A stretch of DNA of 29,304 nt from positions 1 through 29,304 of IMG/VR virus record IMGVR_UViG_3300038436_000099. One strand, written 5' to 3'. This stretch comes from a virus. Below, piece after piece: positions 3,772-25,896 of this stretch. A program made the translations under genes and the position numbers. Within the stretch, counting starts at the first letter, position 1. Each line of letters starts with the position of its first letter. The notes under the pieces are model-generated. The model was not told the origin of the DNA. It saw nothing but the letters and a program-made list of their open reading frames with translations, and did no database searches.

Positions 3772-3998
3772 AGCTAAAAGTTTTATTTAGATACAGAAGT
3801 AATCTTGCTCAGTATGAGGCGGGGACGGTCATAGATGTTGATCTTGAGACAGCAAAGTTTTTAGATCGAGACGCGCCCGGCTGCTTTGAAGTGTTTGAGT
3901 CAGAACCGGAACCGGAAACCAAAGAGCTTGACCAACCACCCGCTGACAAAATGATTGACCAGGAAAAGACCGGCCGCGGGCGGCCAAAAACTAAATGA
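3768..3998 (+). CDS. Small hypothetical head-region protein
   Basis: A 76-residue protein with an N-terminal beta-rich part (KLKVLFRYRS, then a GTVIDVDLETAKFLDRD motif) and an acidic, proline-rich tail ending in TGRGRPKTK, which looks like an AT-hook or a basic tail. Small proteins of this kind with a VDLETA...LD pattern occur between capsid and connector genes in many siphoviruses. An inverted copy of the dispersed repeat at 3807-3824 encodes LAQYEAG. The stop overlaps the next gene (ATGA at 3995). Function unknown. Confidence 0.65.
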   Translation: MKLKVLFRYRSNLAQYEAGTVIDVDLETAKFLDRDAPGCFEVFESEPEPETKELDQPPADKMIDQEKTGRGRPKTK

Positions 3999-4960
3999 AC
4001 GCGCAAATTTATTGCACACTCGCTGATTTGATAGATGACCTGAATCTGCCAGGGGATGAACCCGGTTTGTTTTCACGCATTCAAACCGCGTCCGGGTTCA
4101 TCAACCGGCGGTTTGGTGATTTTATCCCCCGCTTGGCTACGCGAAAATATTCAGGGAACAACAAGGTCAACCTTGAAGTTGATTATTTGTTGTCTGTATC
4201 TCAAATCCTGAATGATTCCGTGGCCGTTTCGGATTATGACCTCTACCCGCTTAACCGCCATTGGGAAAACGGACCATACACGCGCATCTATAACGAATTG
4301 ACGTGGGAAGAAGAAGTAGAAATCACCGGCGCGTGGGGAAAATTCAGCGAAACAGAAGCCCTGGGAGAGTCTGTAAGCCAGACAGATTCAGCAAACAATC
4401 TCTCAGTAACCAACGCCTCCATACTGAGCCCTGGAATGGTCCTGTTGGCTGGAGATGAACAGGAATTGGTAACTGGCTATGATTCCCCCACGTTGGCCAC
4501 GTCTCAACTGGCGGCCGCGGTGGACATTGCTGATGAAAATATCAGTGTTGATGATGGGGCTGAGTTTAACAGAGGGGAGGTGATCCAACTCTCTACGGAA
4601 GATTGTTACATCAAGCGGATTGTTGGCAACCTGTTATGGGTTGCCCGAGGTTGGAATAACACCATCAAACAATCCCACGCTGAAAATGATCCAATCTCCG
4701 TTTACAGGACTTTCGAGGTTACCCGGGCGGTGAATGGTACTACGGCTGCAGCTCATACCAGCGTTGCGCTTTACCGCTATTTGCCCCCGTATGATGTCAA
4801 TTGGTTGTGTCGGCAAATCGCCGGGCTTATGCGCATGAAAGCCGCTTCCGGTTTTGCTGGAAAAACAGGCAATGCAGATACTGGTGAAACTTTTTATTTC
4901 AATGAATTTCCCAGCCAGGTCAAGGAGATTCAGAAAAATTACCGGGTGGTGCAGCTGTGA
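3995..4960 (+). CDS. Head-tail connector (adaptor) protein
   Basis: 321 residues. The first ~100 residues (YCTLADLIDDLNL..., then ASGFINRRFG) are like the helical gp6/Ad1-type adaptor proteins that sit on the portal ring. The middle, roughly residues 140-250, is a beta-rich insert with two related blocks (SPGMVLLAGDEQELVTG and FNRGEVIQLSTEDCYIKRI). The C-terminus returns to helical adaptor-like sequence containing AGLMRMKAASGFAG. The dispersed repeat at 4415-4434 encodes ASILSPG at the boundary of the insert. Position between capsid and gp10-like genes supports the assignment. The stop overlaps the GTG start of the next gene. Confidence 0.65.
   Translation: MNAQIYCTLADLIDDLNLPGDEPGLFSRIQTASGFINRRFGDFIPRLATRKYSGNNKVNLEVDYLLSVSQILNDSVAVSDYDLYPLNRHWENGPYTRIYNELTWEEEVEITGAWGKFSETEALGESVSQTDSANNLSVTNASILSPGMVLLAGDEQELVTGYDSPTLATSQLAAAVDIADENISVDDGAEFNRGEVIQLSTEDCYIKRIVGNLLWVARGWNNTIKQSHAENDPISVYRTFEVTRAVNGTTAAAHTSVALYRYLPPYDVNWLCRQIAGLMRMKAASGFAGKTGNADTGETFYFNEFPSQVKEIQKNYRVVQL
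4415..4434 (+). repeat. Dispersed repeat, representative single copies
   Basis: GCCTCCATACTGAGCCCTGG is a near-consensus copy (family consensus CCCCTCCATACTGAGCCC). Other single plus-orientation copies: 1763, 7403, 13434, 15421, 17451, 18463, 21893, 23344, 26302. Minus-orientation copies: 3807, 6453 (diverged), 16011, 22324, 25883. All but the one at 16011 lie in genes, and that at 25883 provides a stop codon. Confidence 0.8.
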
Positions 4961-5475
4961 TCGGATATGACATTTCGGTAGAAGGGTTGGAAGAACAGAT
5001 TCAGAAACTGGTTGAATTCGACCTGATAGCCGAAAAGCACCTTAAAACCGCAATGCAAAAATCGGTATTGACCATCGAAGGGGAAGTCAAACCGTTGGTG
5101 CCGGTGGGTGTGTCTGCCAGGCTAAAAAACTCCATCGGCACCACAGTTTTGGAAATCGGCACACTTTCTCTTGAAGGGCGGGTTGGCAGCTCACTAAAAA
5201 GCGAGCTTTACCCGCAGGTCATGGAATTTGGGCGGGAACCTGGAAAAATGCCTCCACCAGAAGCCCTTACACGTTGGGTGCATTTGAAATTGGGTGTGCC
5301 AAAAGAAGATGAATTGCGGGTGGCTTACCTGGTAGCACGGAAAATAAAAAGCAAGGGCATTAAAGCCAAAGAGTTTATGAAAACAGGCTTTGAGAATGCT
5401 AAAGATCGAGTTGTGCGCTTCTTCAACCAGGCGCTTGATGATATTGCACAGGATTTGACCAATGGCCGTAACTGA
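4957..5475 (+). CDS. HK97 gp10-like head closure / tail completion protein
   Basis: 172 residues, starting with GTG at 4957 and overlapping the upstream stop (GTGA). The pattern of an N-terminal helix (EEQIQKLVEFDLIAEKHLKTAM), then VKPLVPVGVSARLKNSIG and a FGREPGKMPPPEALTRWV segment, is characteristic of HK97 gp10-family proteins that join head and tail. The C-terminal half is helical. It overlaps the next gene by 14 bases, implying coupled translation. Confidence 0.75.
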   Translation: MIGYDISVEGLEEQIQKLVEFDLIAEKHLKTAMQKSVLTIEGEVKPLVPVGVSARLKNSIGTTVLEIGTLSLEGRVGSSLKSELYPQVMEFGREPGKMPPPEALTRWVHLKLGVPKEDELRVAYLVARKIKSKGIKAKEFMKTGFENAKDRVVRFFNQALDDIAQDLTNGRN

Positions 5476-18710: not shown

Positions 18711-18919
18711 ATCTGCAATTTATTTTTGAAACCGCCACAGAGCGCCAGGCGCGAACTGAGTATGAAGATACTTTGATTGAAGTCTATGTGCCTGAAGCTG
18801 GTGAAATGACCCGCGAAGAAGCATTGGTTTTGGCGCAAGAAAGAGACCTTCAGGCCTCAATTGAATTGCGTAGTGACGTGATTATGTTGCGTAACCTCGA
18901 AAAAGCTGCCAGCCAATAA
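18707..18919 (+). CDS. Small acidic hypothetical protein
   Basis: 70 residues starting on the ATGA overlap. Acidic and helical (TATERQARTEYEDTLIEVYVPE, MTREEALVLAQERDL). It could be a small partner of the ssDNA-binding protein just upstream. No family recognised. It is the last gene before the structured RNA region. Confidence 0.55.
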   Translation: MNLQFIFETATERQARTEYEDTLIEVYVPEAGEMTREEALVLAQERDLQASIELRSDVIMLRNLEKAASQ

Positions 18920-19211
18920 ATAACTTACGCTTTGGCAGTGTCCCCCCTCACATGCCAACCCGGATAGAGTAACCGAGAAAATTTATCGGTAGATTTTTGG
19001 TTGAACTGGCGGTGTCTCTCGCTAATTTGGGAAAACATCGGCCTGAACGGATAGCTTCCGGGAGTGGGAAGTGAGCCGAGCCGCCAGCAATAAGTAACCT
19101 AAAACCTCAACCCTAAAACTCTCGACGTCAGAGGATGAGTGTGAGCCGGGTTACCGGCAAGGAATTGCACCAACAAAGAGGCGTGACAGCCGGGAGAGAC
19201 CGGCGAACCAT

Positions 19212-19301
19212 GAGGTGGCGGCGTGGTGAGACACGATTTGGGCTAGAAACCCACGAACGGGACAGGCCGTAACCTGCCAGGTTTGAATCCTGGACACCTC
19301 A
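19212..19301 (+). tRNA. tRNA-Ser(AGA)-like, type II
   Basis: 90 bases. Acceptor GAGGTGG pairs with ACACCTC (19294-19300) with one mismatch at the base; A73 discriminator. D arm CGTG/CACG (19222-19225/19232-19235). Anticodon arm TGGG-CTAGAAA-CCCA at 19239-19253, anticodon AGA. Long variable arm ACGG/CCGT (19257-19260/19267-19270). T arm CCAGG-TTTGAAT-CCTGG. Position 8 is C instead of the near-universal U, and A34 is rare in bacteria, so this may be an atypical or decaying gene; identity (Ser or Leu class) is uncertain. Confidence 0.55.
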
Positions 19302-19544
19302 CTTACCACGCTGTGCGTATGTTACAAGGACGTGCCCGGCGCAAGCAGCGCACACGAGTATGCCGGCTGGAGTGCTGACATGATAAGGCGGCATGAGAAA
19401 GCCAGGAGCCAGTAGAGCATGAATCGGCTTGACGGTCGGAGAGACGACAATCGAAGCGGTGTCCACCGGACTATGACCGGATAAACATCGGCGCGCTTGG
19501 GGCAGGCAAGCCGAGCCGCAGAACTTTTACAACTGATTTGATAT

Positions 19545-19735
19545 GAGGCGGCGGCGTGGTGGGAACACGCTGATACATACTTAACTCTCGAATGTCGATC
19601 CGGCCCGGTGTGCAGTAATGTACACGATAGATGCGGGGCAGGGCGGAAATCTTCTGGAAACTGTTCGAGGCACCAGTCGAGCAAAGCGCGGCAGTATGTA
19701 ATTGAGAGAACCAGGTTCGAATCCTGGTCGCCTCA
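19545..19735 (+). tRNA. tRNA-like gene with ~110-base insertion in the anticodon region
   Basis: 5' GAGGCGG pairs with 3' TCGCCTC (19728-19734) followed by A. The D arm GCGTG/CACGC (19554-19558/19566-19570) is close to that of the tRNA at 19212. T arm CCAGG-TTCGAAT-CCTGG at 19711-19727. CATAC (19576-19580) can pair with GTATG (near 19694-19698), so a stem like an anticodon stem encloses about 110 extra bases. Could be an interrupted tRNA (intron or insertion) or halves of two genes. No group I intron core was recognised. Confidence 0.4.
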
Positions 19736-19738
19736 CTT

Positions 19739-19798
19739 GGGAAAGAGAATAGACAGCAAAGCGAAGTGAACCATGCTCAAAGATCGTATCTCTTTCCC
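19739..19798 (+). ncRNA. Long hairpin resembling an acceptor-stem-closed RNA
   Basis: GGGAAAGAGA and TCTCTTTCCC form a perfect 10-bp stem around a 40-base loop; the 3' strand is followed by ACA. The loop contains GCGAAGTGAACC, words like the two repeats of the array at 24543-25290. No T arm, so not a standard tRNA. Confidence 0.4.
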
Positions 19799-19802
19799 AC
19801 AT

Positions 19803-19902
19803 GAAGAAGGTTTGCATATTTTGGTAAATATGTGAAGTCTCGAAGCCGAAGTGAACCAGATCTTATAAACGTTTTTCTCCGGTTCGAATCCGGCCTTCTT
19901 CA
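19803..19902 (+). tRNA. tRNA-like gene with extended middle
   Basis: GAAGAAG pairs perfectly with CTTCTTC (19895-19901), discriminator A, then CC, so a partial CCA is encoded. D arm CATAT/ATATG with a loop containing GG (19815-19832). T arm centred on TTCGAAT (19883-19889), with four of five stem pairs. At 100 bases it is longer than a class I tRNA; the anticodon arm cannot be fixed by eye. The extra part again contains GAAGTGAACC. Confidence 0.4.
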
Positions 19903-20235
19903 CCTAAAGGAGCCAGCTATCAGGAGTGAACCAAAACCTTTAAGCGCAAACCTAACCATTCTGACGGGCGCGAGAACGCAACGGGCTTTCCTCCTTTCCC
20001 CGTATCGTGGGGGCAGTACCCACGAGCCCATTTAGCGAAGCTTCTGAGGTCGTTTCCTCATAAACGAGAAGCCAAAGCCTGTGAGAGCTGGGTAACGGGA
20101 AACAGCTAAAAAACCAGCACACAACTTAATATGAGCCCCATTGTATGTATGCAGCGGAAAAATCCGGTCTGTTGGCTAATCGTTCGACCCCTTATTGTGG
20201 TGATAAGGTTCAGCAAATTCAAATGGGGCTCACCT

Positions 20236-20298
20236 GGGGCGCGAAGGTTTCTCAGATTCCCTCCCATCTCTGACCAGGTTCAATTCCTGGGCGCTCCA
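20236..20298 (+). tRNA. Short tRNA-like gene lacking a D arm
   Basis: GGGGCGC pairs with GCGCTCC (20291-20297) with one G-U; A73. T arm CCAGG-TTCAATT-CCTGG at 20274-20290. Only 31 bases separate the acceptor strand and the T arm, so there is room for one arm (TCAGA/TCTGA). Either a D-armless tRNA or a tRNA 3' half with a fortuitous 5' match. Confidence 0.35.
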
Positions 20299-20327
20299 CA
20301 AGATATTTTTTAGAGAAAGGATTAACC

Positions 20328-20537
20328 ATGATCGAAGTTGATGAAAAAGAATTAGCCGAGATCGGCAAGAACGTGAAAGCCGTTTTGAAGGGTAAGCACC
20401 TGGTGATTGTGGTGGATGTAAGCCAGGAAATTGGCGAGAGCGCAAGCGGCAAAATGATGATGGTTGCTTCCACCAGCGGGTTTACTAATCTGCCAGGGCA
20501 CATGAAAGCTAATATCAACATCGGAAAGAAGCACTAA
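20328..20537 (+). CDS. Small hypothetical protein
   Basis: 69 residues with AAAGGA upstream. It has an alternating strand/helix pattern (ELAEIGKNVKAVL, HLVIVVDVSQEIGES, MMMVASTSGFTNL). Translationally coupled (TAATG) to the ERCC4 nuclease gene, so probably a partner in DNA processing. No family recognised. Confidence 0.6.
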   Translation: MIEVDEKELAEIGKNVKAVLKGKHLVIVVDVSQEIGESASGKMMMVASTSGFTNLPGHMKANINIGKKH

Positions 20538-21278: not shown

Positions 21279-22040
21279 ATGGATGAATCGAAAAGTTTAG
21301 CAGTTTTTGAACAGCGTTCCGTTACGCCTGAGATTTGGCAAATGATCAATTCCATGGCTCCGGTAATGCACGAATCACGCCTCTTTGGAGTCTCTTCCAA
21401 AGAACAGGCGGCCGCTATCATGCTCAAAGGTTATGAGGTTGGTTTTGGTTTGGCAGCATCTTTTGACCTGGTGCAAGTGATTCAAGGCCGGCCGGGTGTT
21501 TCCCCGCGTGGATGTATGGCGCTGATTCTGAACAGCCCGAAAATCAAATCTGTTGAGGTGAACCGGATAACAGATAATAAAGGCTCTTACGTTGGACATG
21601 AATGCACGATGGAACGCGCCAACGGTTTCAAATACTCGGTTCGCTTCACCATGGAAGACGCAAAACGCGCCGGGCTGGTGAAACCGGATTCAGGATGGGA
21701 AAAATACCCAGAAAATATGTGCCAATGGCGTGCAATTGGTTTCGCTGCTGATGTGGTTGCCCCTGATATTACATCCGGCCTGACTGGTTTGATGAAAATG
21801 CCTGAACAGTATGGCGTTGCTCTGACTGCTGAAGGCGACATTATTGACATCAAAGCCGAAGTCCGGGAAGCGGCAAAACCACAACCTCTCCCCGCCTCCA
21901 ATACTGAGCCCGAACTTACTCTGGCTGATCTGATCTTTGTTTACTCAGCAGATAAGATCATGGCTGCCAACGGCGGCGCGATTCCCGGCACACAAGAAGA
22001 AGTCAATGCAGTGGCGGCAAAACTGGCCGGTGGTGAGTAA
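21279..22040 (+). CDS. RecT-family single-strand annealing recombinase
   Basis: 253 residues, AGGAGA 8 bases upstream. The RecT pattern is visible: SKEQAAAIMLKGYEVGFGLAA near 40-65, QGRPGVSPRGCMALILNS, then VRFTMEDAKRAGL, WEKYPENMCQWRAIGFAADVV and DITSGLTGLMKMPEQYG near 155-185. It anneals complementary strands made by the exonuclease encoded next. A linker from the dispersed repeat (SNTEPELT, 21893-21912) separates a ~45-residue C-terminal tail. The stop overlaps the exonuclease start. Confidence 0.85.
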   Translation: MDESKSLAVFEQRSVTPEIWQMINSMAPVMHESRLFGVSSKEQAAAIMLKGYEVGFGLAASFDLVQVIQGRPGVSPRGCMALILNSPKIKSVEVNRITDNKGSYVGHECTMERANGFKYSVRFTMEDAKRAGLVKPDSGWEKYPENMCQWRAIGFAADVVAPDITSGLTGLMKMPEQYGVALTAEGDIIDIKAEVREAAKPQPLPASNTEPELTLADLIFVYSADKIMAANGGAIPGTQEEVNAVAAKLAGGE

Positions 22041-22828
22041 TGATAGAACATTTATCTTATTCCAGCATTTCTGCTTTTCTTGATTGCCCAGAAATCTGGC
22101 GGCGTAAATATCTGGCCAAAGAACCCACCATGACCAGCCCGGCGTTGGTGTTTGGCTCCGCATTCCATGGCACCCTGGAAAAGATTGTAGTTGACCGCCA
22201 GCTTAAGATTCTGGATGTGTGGTCAGAACAATGGACAAAAGCTCTTGAAGGCCAAAATGTTTTCTGGGGTACCGATACACCCGAAGGAATTTGTAACGAA
22301 GGAATTCGCCTGTTTTCCCATGACTCAGTATTGAGGGCGGTTGCGCAAATCAAGCCGGCAGCCGATGAAAACGGTGCGAAGATTGAACGGCGGGTTGAAC
22401 TGCGTGTGCCAGGTGTGCCGGTGCCAGTGATTGGTTACATTGATATCACTCTTGAAGATGGCACTCCGGCCGATTTCAAGACCAGCTCAAAATCATGGAG
22501 CGATGCAAAAGCTTCTGATTCCTTGCAAAGCCTGTTTTATCTGGCCGCGCTGAATCAGGCCGGCGAGAAGATCAACTGGAAATTTCAACATATCGTTTTC
22601 GTAAAGAGCAAAAAACCCAAAGTGCAATTCCTTGAGCACTCGCACACCCCCGGTGAACTGTTTTTCCTGTTTGACCTGATTGGCCGTGTGTGGAAGTCCA
22701 TTGAAACCGGCGTGTTTCCTCTGAACCCTACTGGGTGGAAATGCAGCCCTTCATACTGCGATTTTTGGCAGAACTGCCGGGGAAAATTTATTTATGGAGG
22801 GAATCATCATGGCAACCATTACGGCTGA
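22040..22828 (+). CDS. Cas4/RecB-like PD-(D/E)XK exonuclease with Fe-S cysteines
   Basis: 262 residues. LSYSSISAFLDCPEIWRRKY opens a RecB-type fold; VIGYIDITLEDGTPADFKT supplies Asp135, Asp145 and Lys147 of the PD-(D/E)XK site; SLQSLFYLAALNQ is the following QXXXY-type helix. Cys16 plus Cys235, Cys240 and Cys246 near the end form the four-cysteine pattern of Cas4/AddB Fe-S clusters. It would resect DNA ends for RecT. An inverted dispersed-repeat copy (22324-22340) encodes DSVLRA. Overlaps the next gene by 20 bases. Confidence 0.85.
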   Translation: MIEHLSYSSISAFLDCPEIWRRKYLAKEPTMTSPALVFGSAFHGTLEKIVVDRQLKILDVWSEQWTKALEGQNVFWGTDTPEGICNEGIRLFSHDSVLRAVAQIKPAADENGAKIERRVELRVPGVPVPVIGYIDITLEDGTPADFKTSSKSWSDAKASDSLQSLFYLAALNQAGEKINWKFQHIVFVKSKKPKVQFLEHSHTPGELFFLFDLIGRVWKSIETGVFPLNPTGWKCSPSYCDFWQNCRGKFIYGGNHHGNHYG

Positions 22829-23627: not shown

Positions 23628-23836
23628 ACATTCAACTTGAAATCATCAAAGCTGCAAGAAGCAATGGCAACCCGGACATTCAACGGTTTGCAAAAACTTA
23701 TCTTGATTTACCGCTTTCCGAGAAGCGGAACATTAACCAATTTATTGAACGGATTTCATCCATCCAAAACTGTGGCGTGATTGGCGCCCTTGAAGTGGTT
23801 GGAAAAGTCGGTGAATACCTATCAGGAGGAAATTAA
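23624..23836 (+). CDS. Small hypothetical protein upstream of the Nop-like protein
   Basis: 70 residues from the ATG that overlaps the previous stop (ATGA), with GGAGG 7 bases upstream. Helical: LEIIKAARSNGNPDIQRFAK, LPLSEKRNINQFIERISS, GVIGALEVVGKVGEYL. The end is 1 base before the next start, and its last codons carry the AGGAGGA ribosome site of the Tas-like gene. It could be a regulator or partner of that gene, or only part of the replication operon. Confidence 0.6.
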   Translation: MNIQLEIIKAARSNGNPDIQRFAKTYLDLPLSEKRNINQFIERISSIQNCGVIGALEVVGKVGEYLSGGN

Positions 23837-23837
23837 T

Positions 23838-24542
23838 ATGGCAGACAATATGTTGCGTGTGTTGGTGGACTTACGTGATCGTACAATCCAGAAAAGCCGG
23901 ATTGCAATGGGGAACCGGTTGGCGGCTATCGAAAGCGGTCGGGATGAAGCAGACGATAAAACCGCTGCAATGATCGAAAAATGGTTACAGAAATTCGCAG
24001 AAATGGAACATCAGCTGGATGCAGATATCCGGCAAGCCACTGACAATTACCCAATCATTGATCACATGATTGCGGTCAAAGGCCTGGGCGAGATGTTGGC
24101 CGCAAAATTGATTGCTACGATTGATATTGAGCGTGCCGATTCTGTTTCCGCTCTTTGGCGCTATTGCGGGTATGCCGTGATTGATGGGGAGCGCGAACGC
24201 CCTAAAAAGGGTGAAAAGCTTCATTACAACAAAACTGCAAAGACGGTTTGTTATCTGATTGGATCTTCATTTCTCCGATCTGGTTCACCTTATCGAAAGG
24301 TTTACGACAATGCGAAGATTTATTACCAGGCTAACCGGCCAGAATGGACAAAAGCGCGGATCCACAATGCCAGCATGCGCAAAATGATCAAAGTCTTTCT
24401 ATCCCACCTTTGGGAGCGTTGGCGCACTCTGGAAGGGCTTCCCACTCGCGGTTTATATGTGAATGAGTATTTAGGGCATTCAACCTATTTTGAAGCAACA
24501 GAATTTGGTTGGGAACCTTTTACCATGCCAGTGGCAGCTTAG
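23838..24542 (+). CDS. Tas-like protein: Nop/IS110 C-terminal RNA-binding fold, no nuclease domain
   Basis: 234 residues, AGGAGGA 7 bases upstream. Residues 1-70 are a long helical arm (IEKWLQKFAEMEHQLDADI). Residues ~75-200 match the transposase IS116/IS110/IS902 C-terminal domain, related to the Nop domain of box C/D snoRNPs: AVKGLGEMLAAKLIATIDI (80-98), WRYCGYAVIDGERER (107-121), KGEKLHYNKTAKTVCYLIG, and RIHNASMRKMIKVFLSHLWERW. There is no DEDD/RuvC domain before it and no HNH, so it cannot be a complete IS110 recombinase. Directly after the stop lies the 36-nt-period array. Inference: it binds processed array RNAs as a nuclease-less TIGR-associated (Tas) protein. Confidence 0.75.
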   Translation: MADNMLRVLVDLRDRTIQKSRIAMGNRLAAIESGRDEADDKTAAMIEKWLQKFAEMEHQLDADIRQATDNYPIIDHMIAVKGLGEMLAAKLIATIDIERADSVSALWRYCGYAVIDGERERPKKGEKLHYNKTAKTVCYLIGSSFLRSGSPYRKVYDNAKIYYQANRPEWTKARIHNASMRKMIKVFLSHLWERWRTLEGLPTRGLYVNEYLGHSTYFEATEFGWEPFTMPVAA

Positions 24543-25290
24543 TTAACCATATCCCTGAGCGAGCCAATGAAAATTAGTGAACCAGGACAAGAAGCGAGCC
24601 ATTTGACACAAGGAAACCAGACAATCTATGCGAGTCAATACAAAGAGATGACCTAGATAGTAAAGCGAGTCAAGATCAGGAAGAAACCCTGCTTTATTAA
24701 GCGAGCCACGTTATGAGAAATGAATCAGATCACAAGAGCTAGCCAGCAGAAGTGATGCACCCGATTATTTGAAGCGAGCCAGGAAAAGTGATAAACCCAA
24801 TAATTTTAAGCGAGCCTTGCCATAGATGCAAACCAATAACAAAAAGTGAGTCGAGTAAGAAGATTGAACTACTACTAAAAAACGAACCTTGAAAATCGAG
24901 TAATCCTTTTTACGAAAGTGAGCCACAAATAGAAAAGAAACCCGAAACTGCCATGCGAACCATTATCTATTAGAGAACCTGGAAGGTTAAGTGAGTCAAA
25001 AGATGAATCGAACCTAAACAATTATACGAGCCATTTATAAGCAGAAACCCAAATCAATTGAGCTGTAATTACAAAGCTCCAATTTTACCAACCATTAACC
25101 TTTAGTGATCCATAGACAATTGAGTGAGTCGGAAATACAAGAGAACCGAGTTGAATAACGAGCCAAAAACCCCAATTAATCACCAACTGGCGAGTGAATC
25201 AAAGAGTTTAGTGACCCGCCTAATCGAATGAACCTAAAGTGCCGAGCAATCCAAAGTTAGTAAGTGAGTCGCTCTAATCGAGAGAACCAA
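24543..25290 (+). repeat. TIGR-like array: ~20 units of 36 nt with two alternating short repeats
   Basis: Core A (GAGCC, GAGTC or variants, usually preceded by RY) starts at 24561, 24596, 24632, 24667, 24703, 24740, 24776, 24812, 24848, 24884, 24920, 24957, 24993, 25028, 25126, 25160, 25196, 25230 and 25266. Core B (AAACC, GAACC or variants) lies between them at 24579, 24614, 24649, 24684, 24722, 24757, 24793, 24830, 24866, 24902, 24938, 24975, 25010, 25045, 25143, ~25180, 25212, 25248 and 25284; TAACC at 24544 starts the series. A-to-A is 34-37 bases, A-to-B 16-19. Spacers are A+T-rich and do not repeat. Order blurs at 25050-25125. No open frame or stem explains it. It matches tandem interspaced guide RNA arrays giving 36-nt dual-spacer RNAs. 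Confidence 0.8.
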
Positions 25291-25326
25291 TAATTTTAAA
25301 ACGTAATTAACACATCAGGAGGGATG

Positions 25327-25896
25327 ATGAAACAAAATAGTATTATTCCGGGCTCTTTGGGGGCCATTGCTAAACAAAGCGGTAAAACAATCGCTGAAAC
25401 TTTTGTTAATGCGGATGTGATCGTTCTTGTTGATGTTTCCGGTTCTATGGGCGATCACGATAGCCGAGGGGGACGTAGCCGCTATGATGTGGCCTGTGAA
25501 GAGCTGCAACAGCTGCAGCAGAATTTACCTGGGAAAATCGCGGTGGTTGGCTTCTCTGATTACCCTGAATTCTGCCCCAGCGGTATTCCGTTTATGCAAA
25601 ACGGTGGCACTTCAATGGATAAAGCATTGTCTTTCGTGAAAATTGCCGATGTGCCGGGCATGCGATTCATCCTGATATCAGATGGTGAACCGAGTAATGA
25701 ATCTGAAACCTTGCGAATTGCAGCCACATTCCAAAACAAAATCGATGTCATTTTTGTTGGACCGGAAGAACGGCCTTATGGACGTAATTTTCTCCACAAA
25801 TTGGCGGCTGCCACTGGTGGCCAGGCTATCACTGTTGACCGGGCAAAGGAACTCAATGCCGGAATCATGGGTTTGCTGGGTAGGGGCTCAGTATAA
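25327..25896 (+). CDS. von Willebrand factor A (VWA) domain protein
   Basis: 189 residues; AGGAGG at 25317-25322 favours the second of two adjacent ATGs (25327 rather than 25324). The MIDAS metal site is complete: DVSGS (36-40), Thr95 in GGTSMDKA, and Asp119 in LISDGEPS. The rest follows the VWA fold (KIAVVGFSDYP, IDVIFVGPEERPYG, LAAATGGQAITVD). VWA domains mediate metal-dependent protein contacts. It is the first gene after the array and lies on the same strand, so it may be co-transcribed with it, but a functional link is unproven. The stop codon lies in an inverted dispersed-repeat copy (25883-25905). Confidence 0.85.
   Translation: MKQNSIIPGSLGAIAKQSGKTIAETFVNADVIVLVDVSGSMGDHDSRGGRSRYDVACEELQQLQQNLPGKIAVVGFSDYPEFCPSGIPFMQNGGTSMDKALSFVKIADVPGMRFILISDGEPSNESETLRIAATFQNKIDVIFVGPEERPYGRNFLHKLAAATGGQAITVDRAKELNAGIMGLLGRGSV

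What the first reader, a model, noticed from the sequence alone, without database searches (positions are those of the whole stretch)
23838..25290. TIGR-Tas-like RNA-guided system in a temperate phage
Seen: a protein with a Nop/IS110-C-terminal fold is followed with no gap by a ~750-bp non-coding array in which two different 5-7-base repeats alternate every ~18 bases, giving a 36-base unit about 20 times with unique A+T-rich spacers. Known: TIGR-Tas systems consist of exactly such an array, processed to 36-nt RNAs with two spacers, and a Nop-domain protein; they occur in phages. Inference: this is such a system, probably directed against competing phages or plasmids, or used to regulate host or phage genes. 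The repeat sequences and the protein here may represent a divergent subtype.
Basis: partly seen in the sequence, partly recalled or inferred. Interest (0 to 1): 0.95.

Follow-up and report, generated by a model that had tools for sequence, protein, structure and literature searches.

The report
TIGR-TasA guide system in a phage
A bacterial virus carries a complete copy of the recently described TIGR-Tas system (an RNA-binding protein next to a long string of paired short guide sequences), in its nuclease-free form, so it probably steers a DNA-binding protein to other DNA rather than cutting it.

Summary
The window is a 29.3-kb IMG/VR phage record. The 234-aa protein at 23838-24542 passes the curated NCBIfam TIGR-Tas model (216 bits, cut-off 100). 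It matches the solved TasR and TasH structures by sequence profile (E 1e-54, 5e-42) and by AlphaFold2/Foldseek (TM up to 0.84). It has only the Nop part, no HNH or RuvC, so it is a TasA. The next 750 bases are a dual-repeat TIGR array of about 21 36-nt units (edge AGCGAGCCA, loop AGAGAACCA, spacers ~8-9 nt), scoring 279 against at most 43 in 200 dinucleotide shuffles. About 40 related loci share the architecture, so this is a new member of a known kind. Its repeats are unusually degenerate and no terminator follows. Guides show no targeting of their own phage, or of ~1.4 Mb of related DNA, beyond re-paired controls. Between close relatives, arrays turn over much faster than flanks. One near-perfect solitary guide unit and three weaker ones lie 4.6 kb upstream among tRNA-like elements: the most novel feature, unproven. 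Natural targets and role remain unknown; the likeliest role is cleavage-free, RNA-guided binding against competing mobile elements.

The parts
23838..24542 (+). tasA: 234-aa Nop-domain Tas protein without a nuclease domain (stop included)
   Evidence: NCBIfam NF052498 5.1e-64, 216 bits vs cut-off 100; PDB 9mty TasR and 21kl TasH by phmmer/hmmsearch; AF2 pLDDT 93.7 and Foldseek TM 0.84 to TasH
23824..23829 (+). Shine-Dalgarno AGGAGG of tasA
   Evidence: sequence
24541..25289 (+). Dual-repeat TIGR array, 43 alternating repeats, about 21 units of 36 nt
24541..25056 (+). Regular 5' part of the array (about 14 units)
   Evidence: 29-repeat contiguous chain, spacings 18 (22 times), 17 (4), 19 (2); unit listing
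24737..24808 (+). Two adjacent units that look like a diverged tandem duplication (spacers GCAGAAGTG/ATTATTTGA and GGAAAAGTG/ATAATTTTA)
   Evidence: TRF period 36, 81%; 12 of 16 spacer bases shared
25057..25122 (+). Decayed stretch of the array, repeats hardly recognisable
   Evidence: unit listing
25123..25289 (+). Regular 3' part of the array (about 5 units)
25324..25896 (+). VWA-domain protein gene directly after the array, in the same transcription direction; no terminator-like site between
   Evidence: Pfam VWA_2 1.5e-5, just below that family's cut-off; terminator scan
19907..19951 (+). Solitary near-perfect tigRNA-like unit: AAGGAGCCA GCTATCAGG AGTGAACCA AAACCTTTA AGCGCAAAC
   Evidence: 28.1 bits with repeat models from other phages' arrays; maximum 19.3 in 400 shuffled strands
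19832..19876 (+). Weaker tigRNA-like unit inside a tRNA-like element (loop repeat AGTGAACCA exact)
   Evidence: 20.4 bits own model, 13.3 independent model
19747..19791 (+). Weaker tigRNA-like unit enclosed by an 11-bp stem (loop repeat AGTGAACCA exact)
   Evidence: 16.4/16.6 bits; hairpin z -3.05
19184..19228 (+). Doubtful fourth tigRNA-like unit at the start of the tRNA-Ser-like gene
   Evidence: 14.3/14.8 bits, within the shuffled range

Best explanation
A complete TIGR-TasA system in a temperate tailed phage. Shown here: a nuclease-free Nop-domain Tas protein, followed at its stop codon and in the same transcription direction by a dual-repeat TIGR array. Inferred from the published TIGR-Tas work (PMC12045711): the tasA-array transcript is cut within the edge repeats into ~36-nt tigRNAs, probably by a host RNase and in a TasA-dependent way. 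A TasA dimer holds one tigRNA through box D (AG here) and box C (YCA). The two spacers pair with opposite strands of a 16-18-bp DNA site without a PAM and bend it. With no nuclease, the complex blocks or bends rather than cuts. My best guess for the role (about even odds, inference only) is cleavage-free interference with competing mobile elements, by blocking their transcription, replication or maintenance; fast spacer turnover in relatives and the lack of self-targeting fit that best.
For: NCBIfam TIGR_Tas 216 bits vs cut-off 100. TasR/TasH sequence match E 1e-54/5e-42. Fold match TM 0.65-0.84 to TasH and 0.73-0.74 to TasR. The alignment covers only residues 69-308 of TasH (354 aa) and 120-321 of TasR (331 aa), so the N-terminal nuclease parts are absent. 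Array score 279 vs shuffled maximum 42.8. Edge and loop share box D in 39 of 43 arrays (31 AG/AG, 8 TG/TG), as the paper describes. All but a few relatives have a 36-period array next to the gene. Guides do not match their own phage more than re-paired controls. Relatives with 85-93% identical flanks share only 5 of 19/12, or about 3 of 11, units.
Against: No natural target was found for any guide. The repeats here are among the most degenerate of all arrays seen (edge 11.8, loop 7.5 bits, against about 13-19 typically), so some units may be dead. There is no terminator after the array, unlike the typical published layout. The biological function of TasA has not been shown for any member in the paper read. 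The role in competition between mobile elements is inference only.
Confidence: 0.9

Rival explanations
1. TIGR-TasA system used to regulate the phage's own genes or replication, by guided binding to sites in its own genome.
For: TasA lacks a nuclease, so self-binding would be harmless. The gene sits in the recombination/replication module (ERCC4-type nuclease, RecT-like, PDDEXK exonuclease, DnaJ-domain protein).
Against: Across 329 guides in 26 phage records, matches to the own genome in either two-strand layout are no better than for re-paired controls (full 18-mers; 16-mers).
Confidence: 0.12
2. TIGR-TasA system that acts on host chromosome sites (gene control, or an aid to integration).
For: Temperate phage with integrase. 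The paper suggests DNA bending by TasA as an integrase aid.
Against: The five guides of the related prophage in Ornatilinea apprima have no site with up to 1-2 mismatches in the 4.3-Mb host genome in one layout. Fast spacer turnover fits fixed host sites poorly.
Confidence: 0.2
3. A decaying, no longer functional TIGR locus.
For: Among the most degenerate repeats of the arrays compared, irregular spacings and an unreadable stretch at 25057-25122.
Against: The tasA frame is intact, carries the invariant and nearly invariant residues of the family and has a ribosome-binding site. Most units keep boxes C and D; about 19 units remain readable.
Confidence: 0.12
4. An IS110-family transposase relic with repeats unrelated to guide RNA.
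For: Pfam Transposase_20 (E 0.04, below cut-off) and PHROG 'transposase' names.
Against: The catalytic N-terminal part of IS110 is missing. IS110 NCBIfam model 25 bits vs cut-off 140, against 216 vs 100 for TIGR-Tas. IS621/ISCro4 fold matches are much weaker (TM about 0.6) than TasH/TasR. The array is present beside the gene in about 40 relatives.
Confidence: 0.01

Closest known systems
TIGR-TasA with dual-repeat array (Faure et al. 2025, PMC12045711; e.g. the Flavonifractor plautii locus)
   Same: Solo Nop-domain protein next to alternating edge/loop repeats with two short spacers per 36-nt unit; box C and box D shared between edge and loop; found in phages
   Different: Box D is AG, not the UG of TasR arrays; repeats unusually degenerate; about 21 units (published arrays most often 5-15); no terminator after the array, a VWA gene follows; possible extra solitary units 4.6 kb upstream
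TIGR-TasH of Salicola phage CGphi29 (PDB 21kl, 9w04)
   Same: Nop part about 28% identical, TM up to 0.84; the array in L007 has edge AGCGAGCCA and loop AGACAACCA, nearly the same repeats as here
   Different: TasH has an N-terminal HNH nuclease; this protein does not
TIGR-TasR (PDB 9mty)
   Same: Nop part homologous (E 1e-54 by profile)
   Different: TasR has a RuvC nuclease; its repeats use box D UG
Ornatilinea apprima P3M-1 prophage-like locus (L065)
   Same: TasA 62% identical, short array with edge AGCGAGCCA and loop AGAAACCCA, same strand
   Different: Only about 5 units and a terminator-like hairpin after the array; in a cultured Anaerolineae host
IS110 transposases with bridge RNA (IS621, ISCro4)
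   Same: Distant Nop-like RNA-binding fold (TM about 0.6)
   Different: DEDD catalytic domain and single bridge RNA; neither here

Membership tests
TIGR-Tas (dual-repeat type) | Tas protein with a Nop domain | tested here: met
   NF052498 216 bits vs cut-off 100; TasR/TasH sequence and fold matches
TIGR-Tas (dual-repeat type) | Adjacent array of two alternating 8-12-nt repeats with ~9-nt spacers, 36-nt period | tested here: met
   repeats 9-10 nt, spacers 8-9
TIGR-Tas (dual-repeat type) | Box D and box C shared (covarying) between edge and loop | tested here: met
   AG/AG and CCA/CCA here; 39 of 43 arrays share box D between edge and loop
TIGR-Tas (dual-repeat type) | Array followed by a rho-independent terminator (typical, not obligatory) | tested here: not met
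   No terminator-like site between 25289 and the VWA gene
TIGR-Tas (dual-repeat type) | Array processed into 36-nt tigRNAs bound by Tas | not testable with these tools
   Needs RNA sequencing
TIGR-Tas (dual-repeat type) | tigRNA-guided binding of both strands of dsDNA | not testable with these tools
   Needs biochemistry
TasA subtype | No nuclease domain fused to the Nop part | tested here: met
   Protein aligns only to residues 69-308 of TasH and 120-321 of TasR; no nuclease domain found in it by Pfam
TasA-TasParB variant | ParB-like gene in an operon with tasA | tested here: not met
   None of the neighbours tested by family search matches ParB; the small ORFs around were not all tested
IS110 transposase | DEDD catalytic domain | tested here: not met
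   NF033542 25 bits vs cut-off 140, matching only its C-terminal positions 148-332; protein lacks the N-terminal part

The most novel reading that the evidence does not exclude
The phage carries a second, dispersed source of guides: solitary tigRNA units (19747-19951) placed among, and in one case inside, tRNA-like elements, so that their RNAs could be released by tRNA-processing enzymes rather than by array processing. This would parallel box C/D guides in archaeal pre-tRNA introns and tRNA-snoRNA transcripts (the parallel is from general knowledge, not tested).
Probability: 0.25. Interest if true: 0.75.

Novelty: new member of a known kind. Interest (0 to 1): 0.45.

Why it matters
TIGR-Tas was described in 2025, and the natural targets, the array dynamics and the role of nuclease-free TasA are open. 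This locus and its relatives give (1) a well-defined TasA clade, with one prophage-like member in a cultured bacterium (Ornatilinea apprima P3M-1), in which native tigRNAs and binding sites can be looked for directly; (2) evidence that guides do not address their own phage; (3) evidence that units are gained and lost much faster than the flanking DNA diverges; (4) a possible second, tRNA-associated guide source.

Tried and rejected
Self-targeting and cross-targeting among 63 loci/contigs (1.38 Mb), two two-strand layouts plus a same-strand control, full 18-mers and 16-mers: no clear excess in the two-strand layouts over re-paired spacers (one search gave 4 and 3 one-mismatch hits against 1.2 and 0.6 per control round, on very small counts and with duplicate records). 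The same-strand A+B control layout gave 37 one-mismatch hits in other records against 21 per control round; I did not follow this up, as it is not the published targeting layout and related records were not collapsed. Exact 18-mer pseudo-targets in IMG/VR: two array guides gave 0 hits; the solitary unit gave 5 hits that are all copies of one phage sequence, so one independent hit, as chance allows. A search for tRNA-embedded AGTGAACCA units in IMG/VR gave 11 mostly tRNA-like places with no Tas gene in the DNA held. The ncRNA region had no match in phage records and no Rfam family at gathering score. Expansion of arrays by unit duplication shows only a modest excess of similar neighbouring units over shuffled spacers. 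A search by the VWA gene found 16 relatives with no tas gene detected in those stretches, and none close enough to serve as an empty site.

Full report
What is there. The window is a whole IMG/VR virus record of 29,304 bases with head, tail, endolysin and tyrosine-integrase genes, so most likely a temperate tailed phage. The gene at 23838-24542 encodes 234 aa and is followed at its stop codon by about 750 bases without an ORF of 60 aa or more.

The array is real. Base identity at distance 36 is 0.385, z 6.3 against dinucleotide shuffles (with simple shuffles). A segmentation into alternating edge and loop repeats scores 279 on 24540-25310, against a mean of 19.8 and a maximum of 42.8 in 200 dinucleotide shuffles. 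A run over a longer stretch places 43 repeats from 24541 to 25289. Edge consensus AGCGAGCCA, loop AGAGAACCA. The last base of each 9-nt spacer is a purine in about 92% of spacers over all arrays, so the functional repeat is nearer 10 nt and the spacer nearer 8. The stretch 25057-25122 is badly decayed and the whole array is among the most degenerate of those compared (edge 11.8, loop 7.5 bits).

The protein is a Tas protein. NCBIfam NF052498 (TIGR_Tas, equivalog) gives 5.1e-64, 216 bits, cut-off 100; the IS110 model stays far below its cut-off. phmmer matches TasR 9mty (3.7e-27) and TasH 21kl (1.7e-22); a profile of 29 relatives gives 1.2e-54 and 4.8e-42. The AlphaFold2 model has pLDDT 93.7; the best fold matches are TasH (TM up to 0.84) and TasR (0.74), then IS621/ISCro4 at about 0.6. 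Only the Nop part of TasR and TasH is covered, so this is the nuclease-free TasA form. The word 'endonuclease' in the NCBI name is not supported for this protein.

Relatives. tas relatives were found in 82 phage records by tblastn, in 41 IMG/VR loci and in 4 genome contigs, including Ornatilinea apprima P3M-1, Chloroflexota. Nearly all the loci examined carry a 36-period array beside the gene, including Microcystis phage Mvi-JY20 (L006) and Salicola phage CGphi29 (L007). Box D is shared between edge and loop in 39 of 43 arrays (AG/AG 31, TG/TG 8), as described for TIGR arrays in PMC12045711. All 28 aligned proteins match the TIGR_Tas model.

Targets. From the published cut geometry (8-nt 3' overhangs) I took spacer A + reverse complement of spacer B as the likely target layout, and also tested the other order. 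In 329 guides from 26 phages the best match to the own genome is distributed like that of re-paired guides; the same holds for 16-mers and, within small counts, for 1.38 Mb of related DNA. Five guides of the O. apprima prophage-like locus have no close site in its host genome, in one layout and up to 1-2 mismatches. So self-regulation is not supported, and no target is identified.

Array turnover. L049 and L051 have flanks 93% identical, yet only about 5 of 19 and 12 units are shared, in the same order, with single units present or absent inside the array. L050 and L052 (flanks 82-88%) share about 3 of 11. L029 and L030 share 3 identical units and 1 near-identical unit. Units are thus replaced faster than the flanks diverge. 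In the window, two adjacent units look like a diverged duplication.

Possible second guide source. Outside the array the best unit-like site on either strand is 19907-19951 (AAGGAGCCA GCTATCAGG AGTGAACCA AAACCTTTA AGCG), 28.1 bits with repeat models built only from other phages; 400 shuffled strands reach 19.3 at most. Two more sites with the exact loop repeat lie at 19747-19791 and 19832-19876; AGTGAACCA occurs 4 times in the window where 0.24 are expected. With the independent models these two, and a fourth at 19184-19228, score one by one within the range of the shuffles, although the four are also the top four sites of the + strand outside the array. They lie in an ORF-poor region with a tRNA-Ser-like gene and further T-arm-like sequences. 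One sits inside an 11-bp hairpin (z -3.05), another inside a tRNA-like fold. In 25 related records no comparable cluster was seen, and ARAGORN found no tRNA in those scanned, although some have second remote arrays. This is suggestive, not shown.

Mechanism. Shown: protein class, array, lack of nuclease, same strand and direct adjacency. Inferred from the published family: processing to 36-nt tigRNAs, dimer binding through boxes C and D, pairing of the two spacers with opposite DNA strands. Guess: cleavage-free interference with competing mobile elements.

Verdict.

Noticed in passing
window 18900-20330: About 1.4 kb, ORF-poor, with a tRNA-Ser(AGA)-like gene at 19212-19302 and three more T-arm/acceptor-like sequences near 19711-19737, 19877-19905 and 20275-20300; no Rfam family at gathering score and no match in phage records.
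   Followed up: partly
window 19747-19951: Three exact copies of the TIGR loop repeat AGTGAACCA with array-like 9-9-9 spacing, outside the array; one is a near-perfect tigRNA unit.
   Followed up: partly
L049 and L051, L050 and L052, L029 and L030: Arrays of closely related phages share only some units, in conserved order, while flanks are about 82-93% identical: fast turnover of guides.
   Followed up: partly
L065 10001-10891: Prophage-like TasA locus with about 5 units and a terminator-like hairpin in the cultured Anaerolineae bacterium Ornatilinea apprima P3M-1.
   Followed up: partly
L006 (PP438412.1) 3950-5007: Microcystis phage Mvi-JY20 carries a TasA gene annotated only as 'hypothetical protein', with a dual-repeat array ending near a terminator-like hairpin.
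   Followed up: no
G006:C1 around 19779-19815; G004:C1 around 52310: Second TIGR arrays remote from the tas gene in other phages.
   Followed up: no
window 22040-22828: PD-(D/E)XK exonuclease with weak similarity to Cas4, next to RecT-like and ERCC4-type genes, upstream of tasA: an ordinary phage recombination module.
   Followed up: no
all parsed arrays: Spacer position 9 is a purine in about 92% of cases, so the repeats of this clade are nearer 10 nt and spacers 8 nt.
   Followed up: partly
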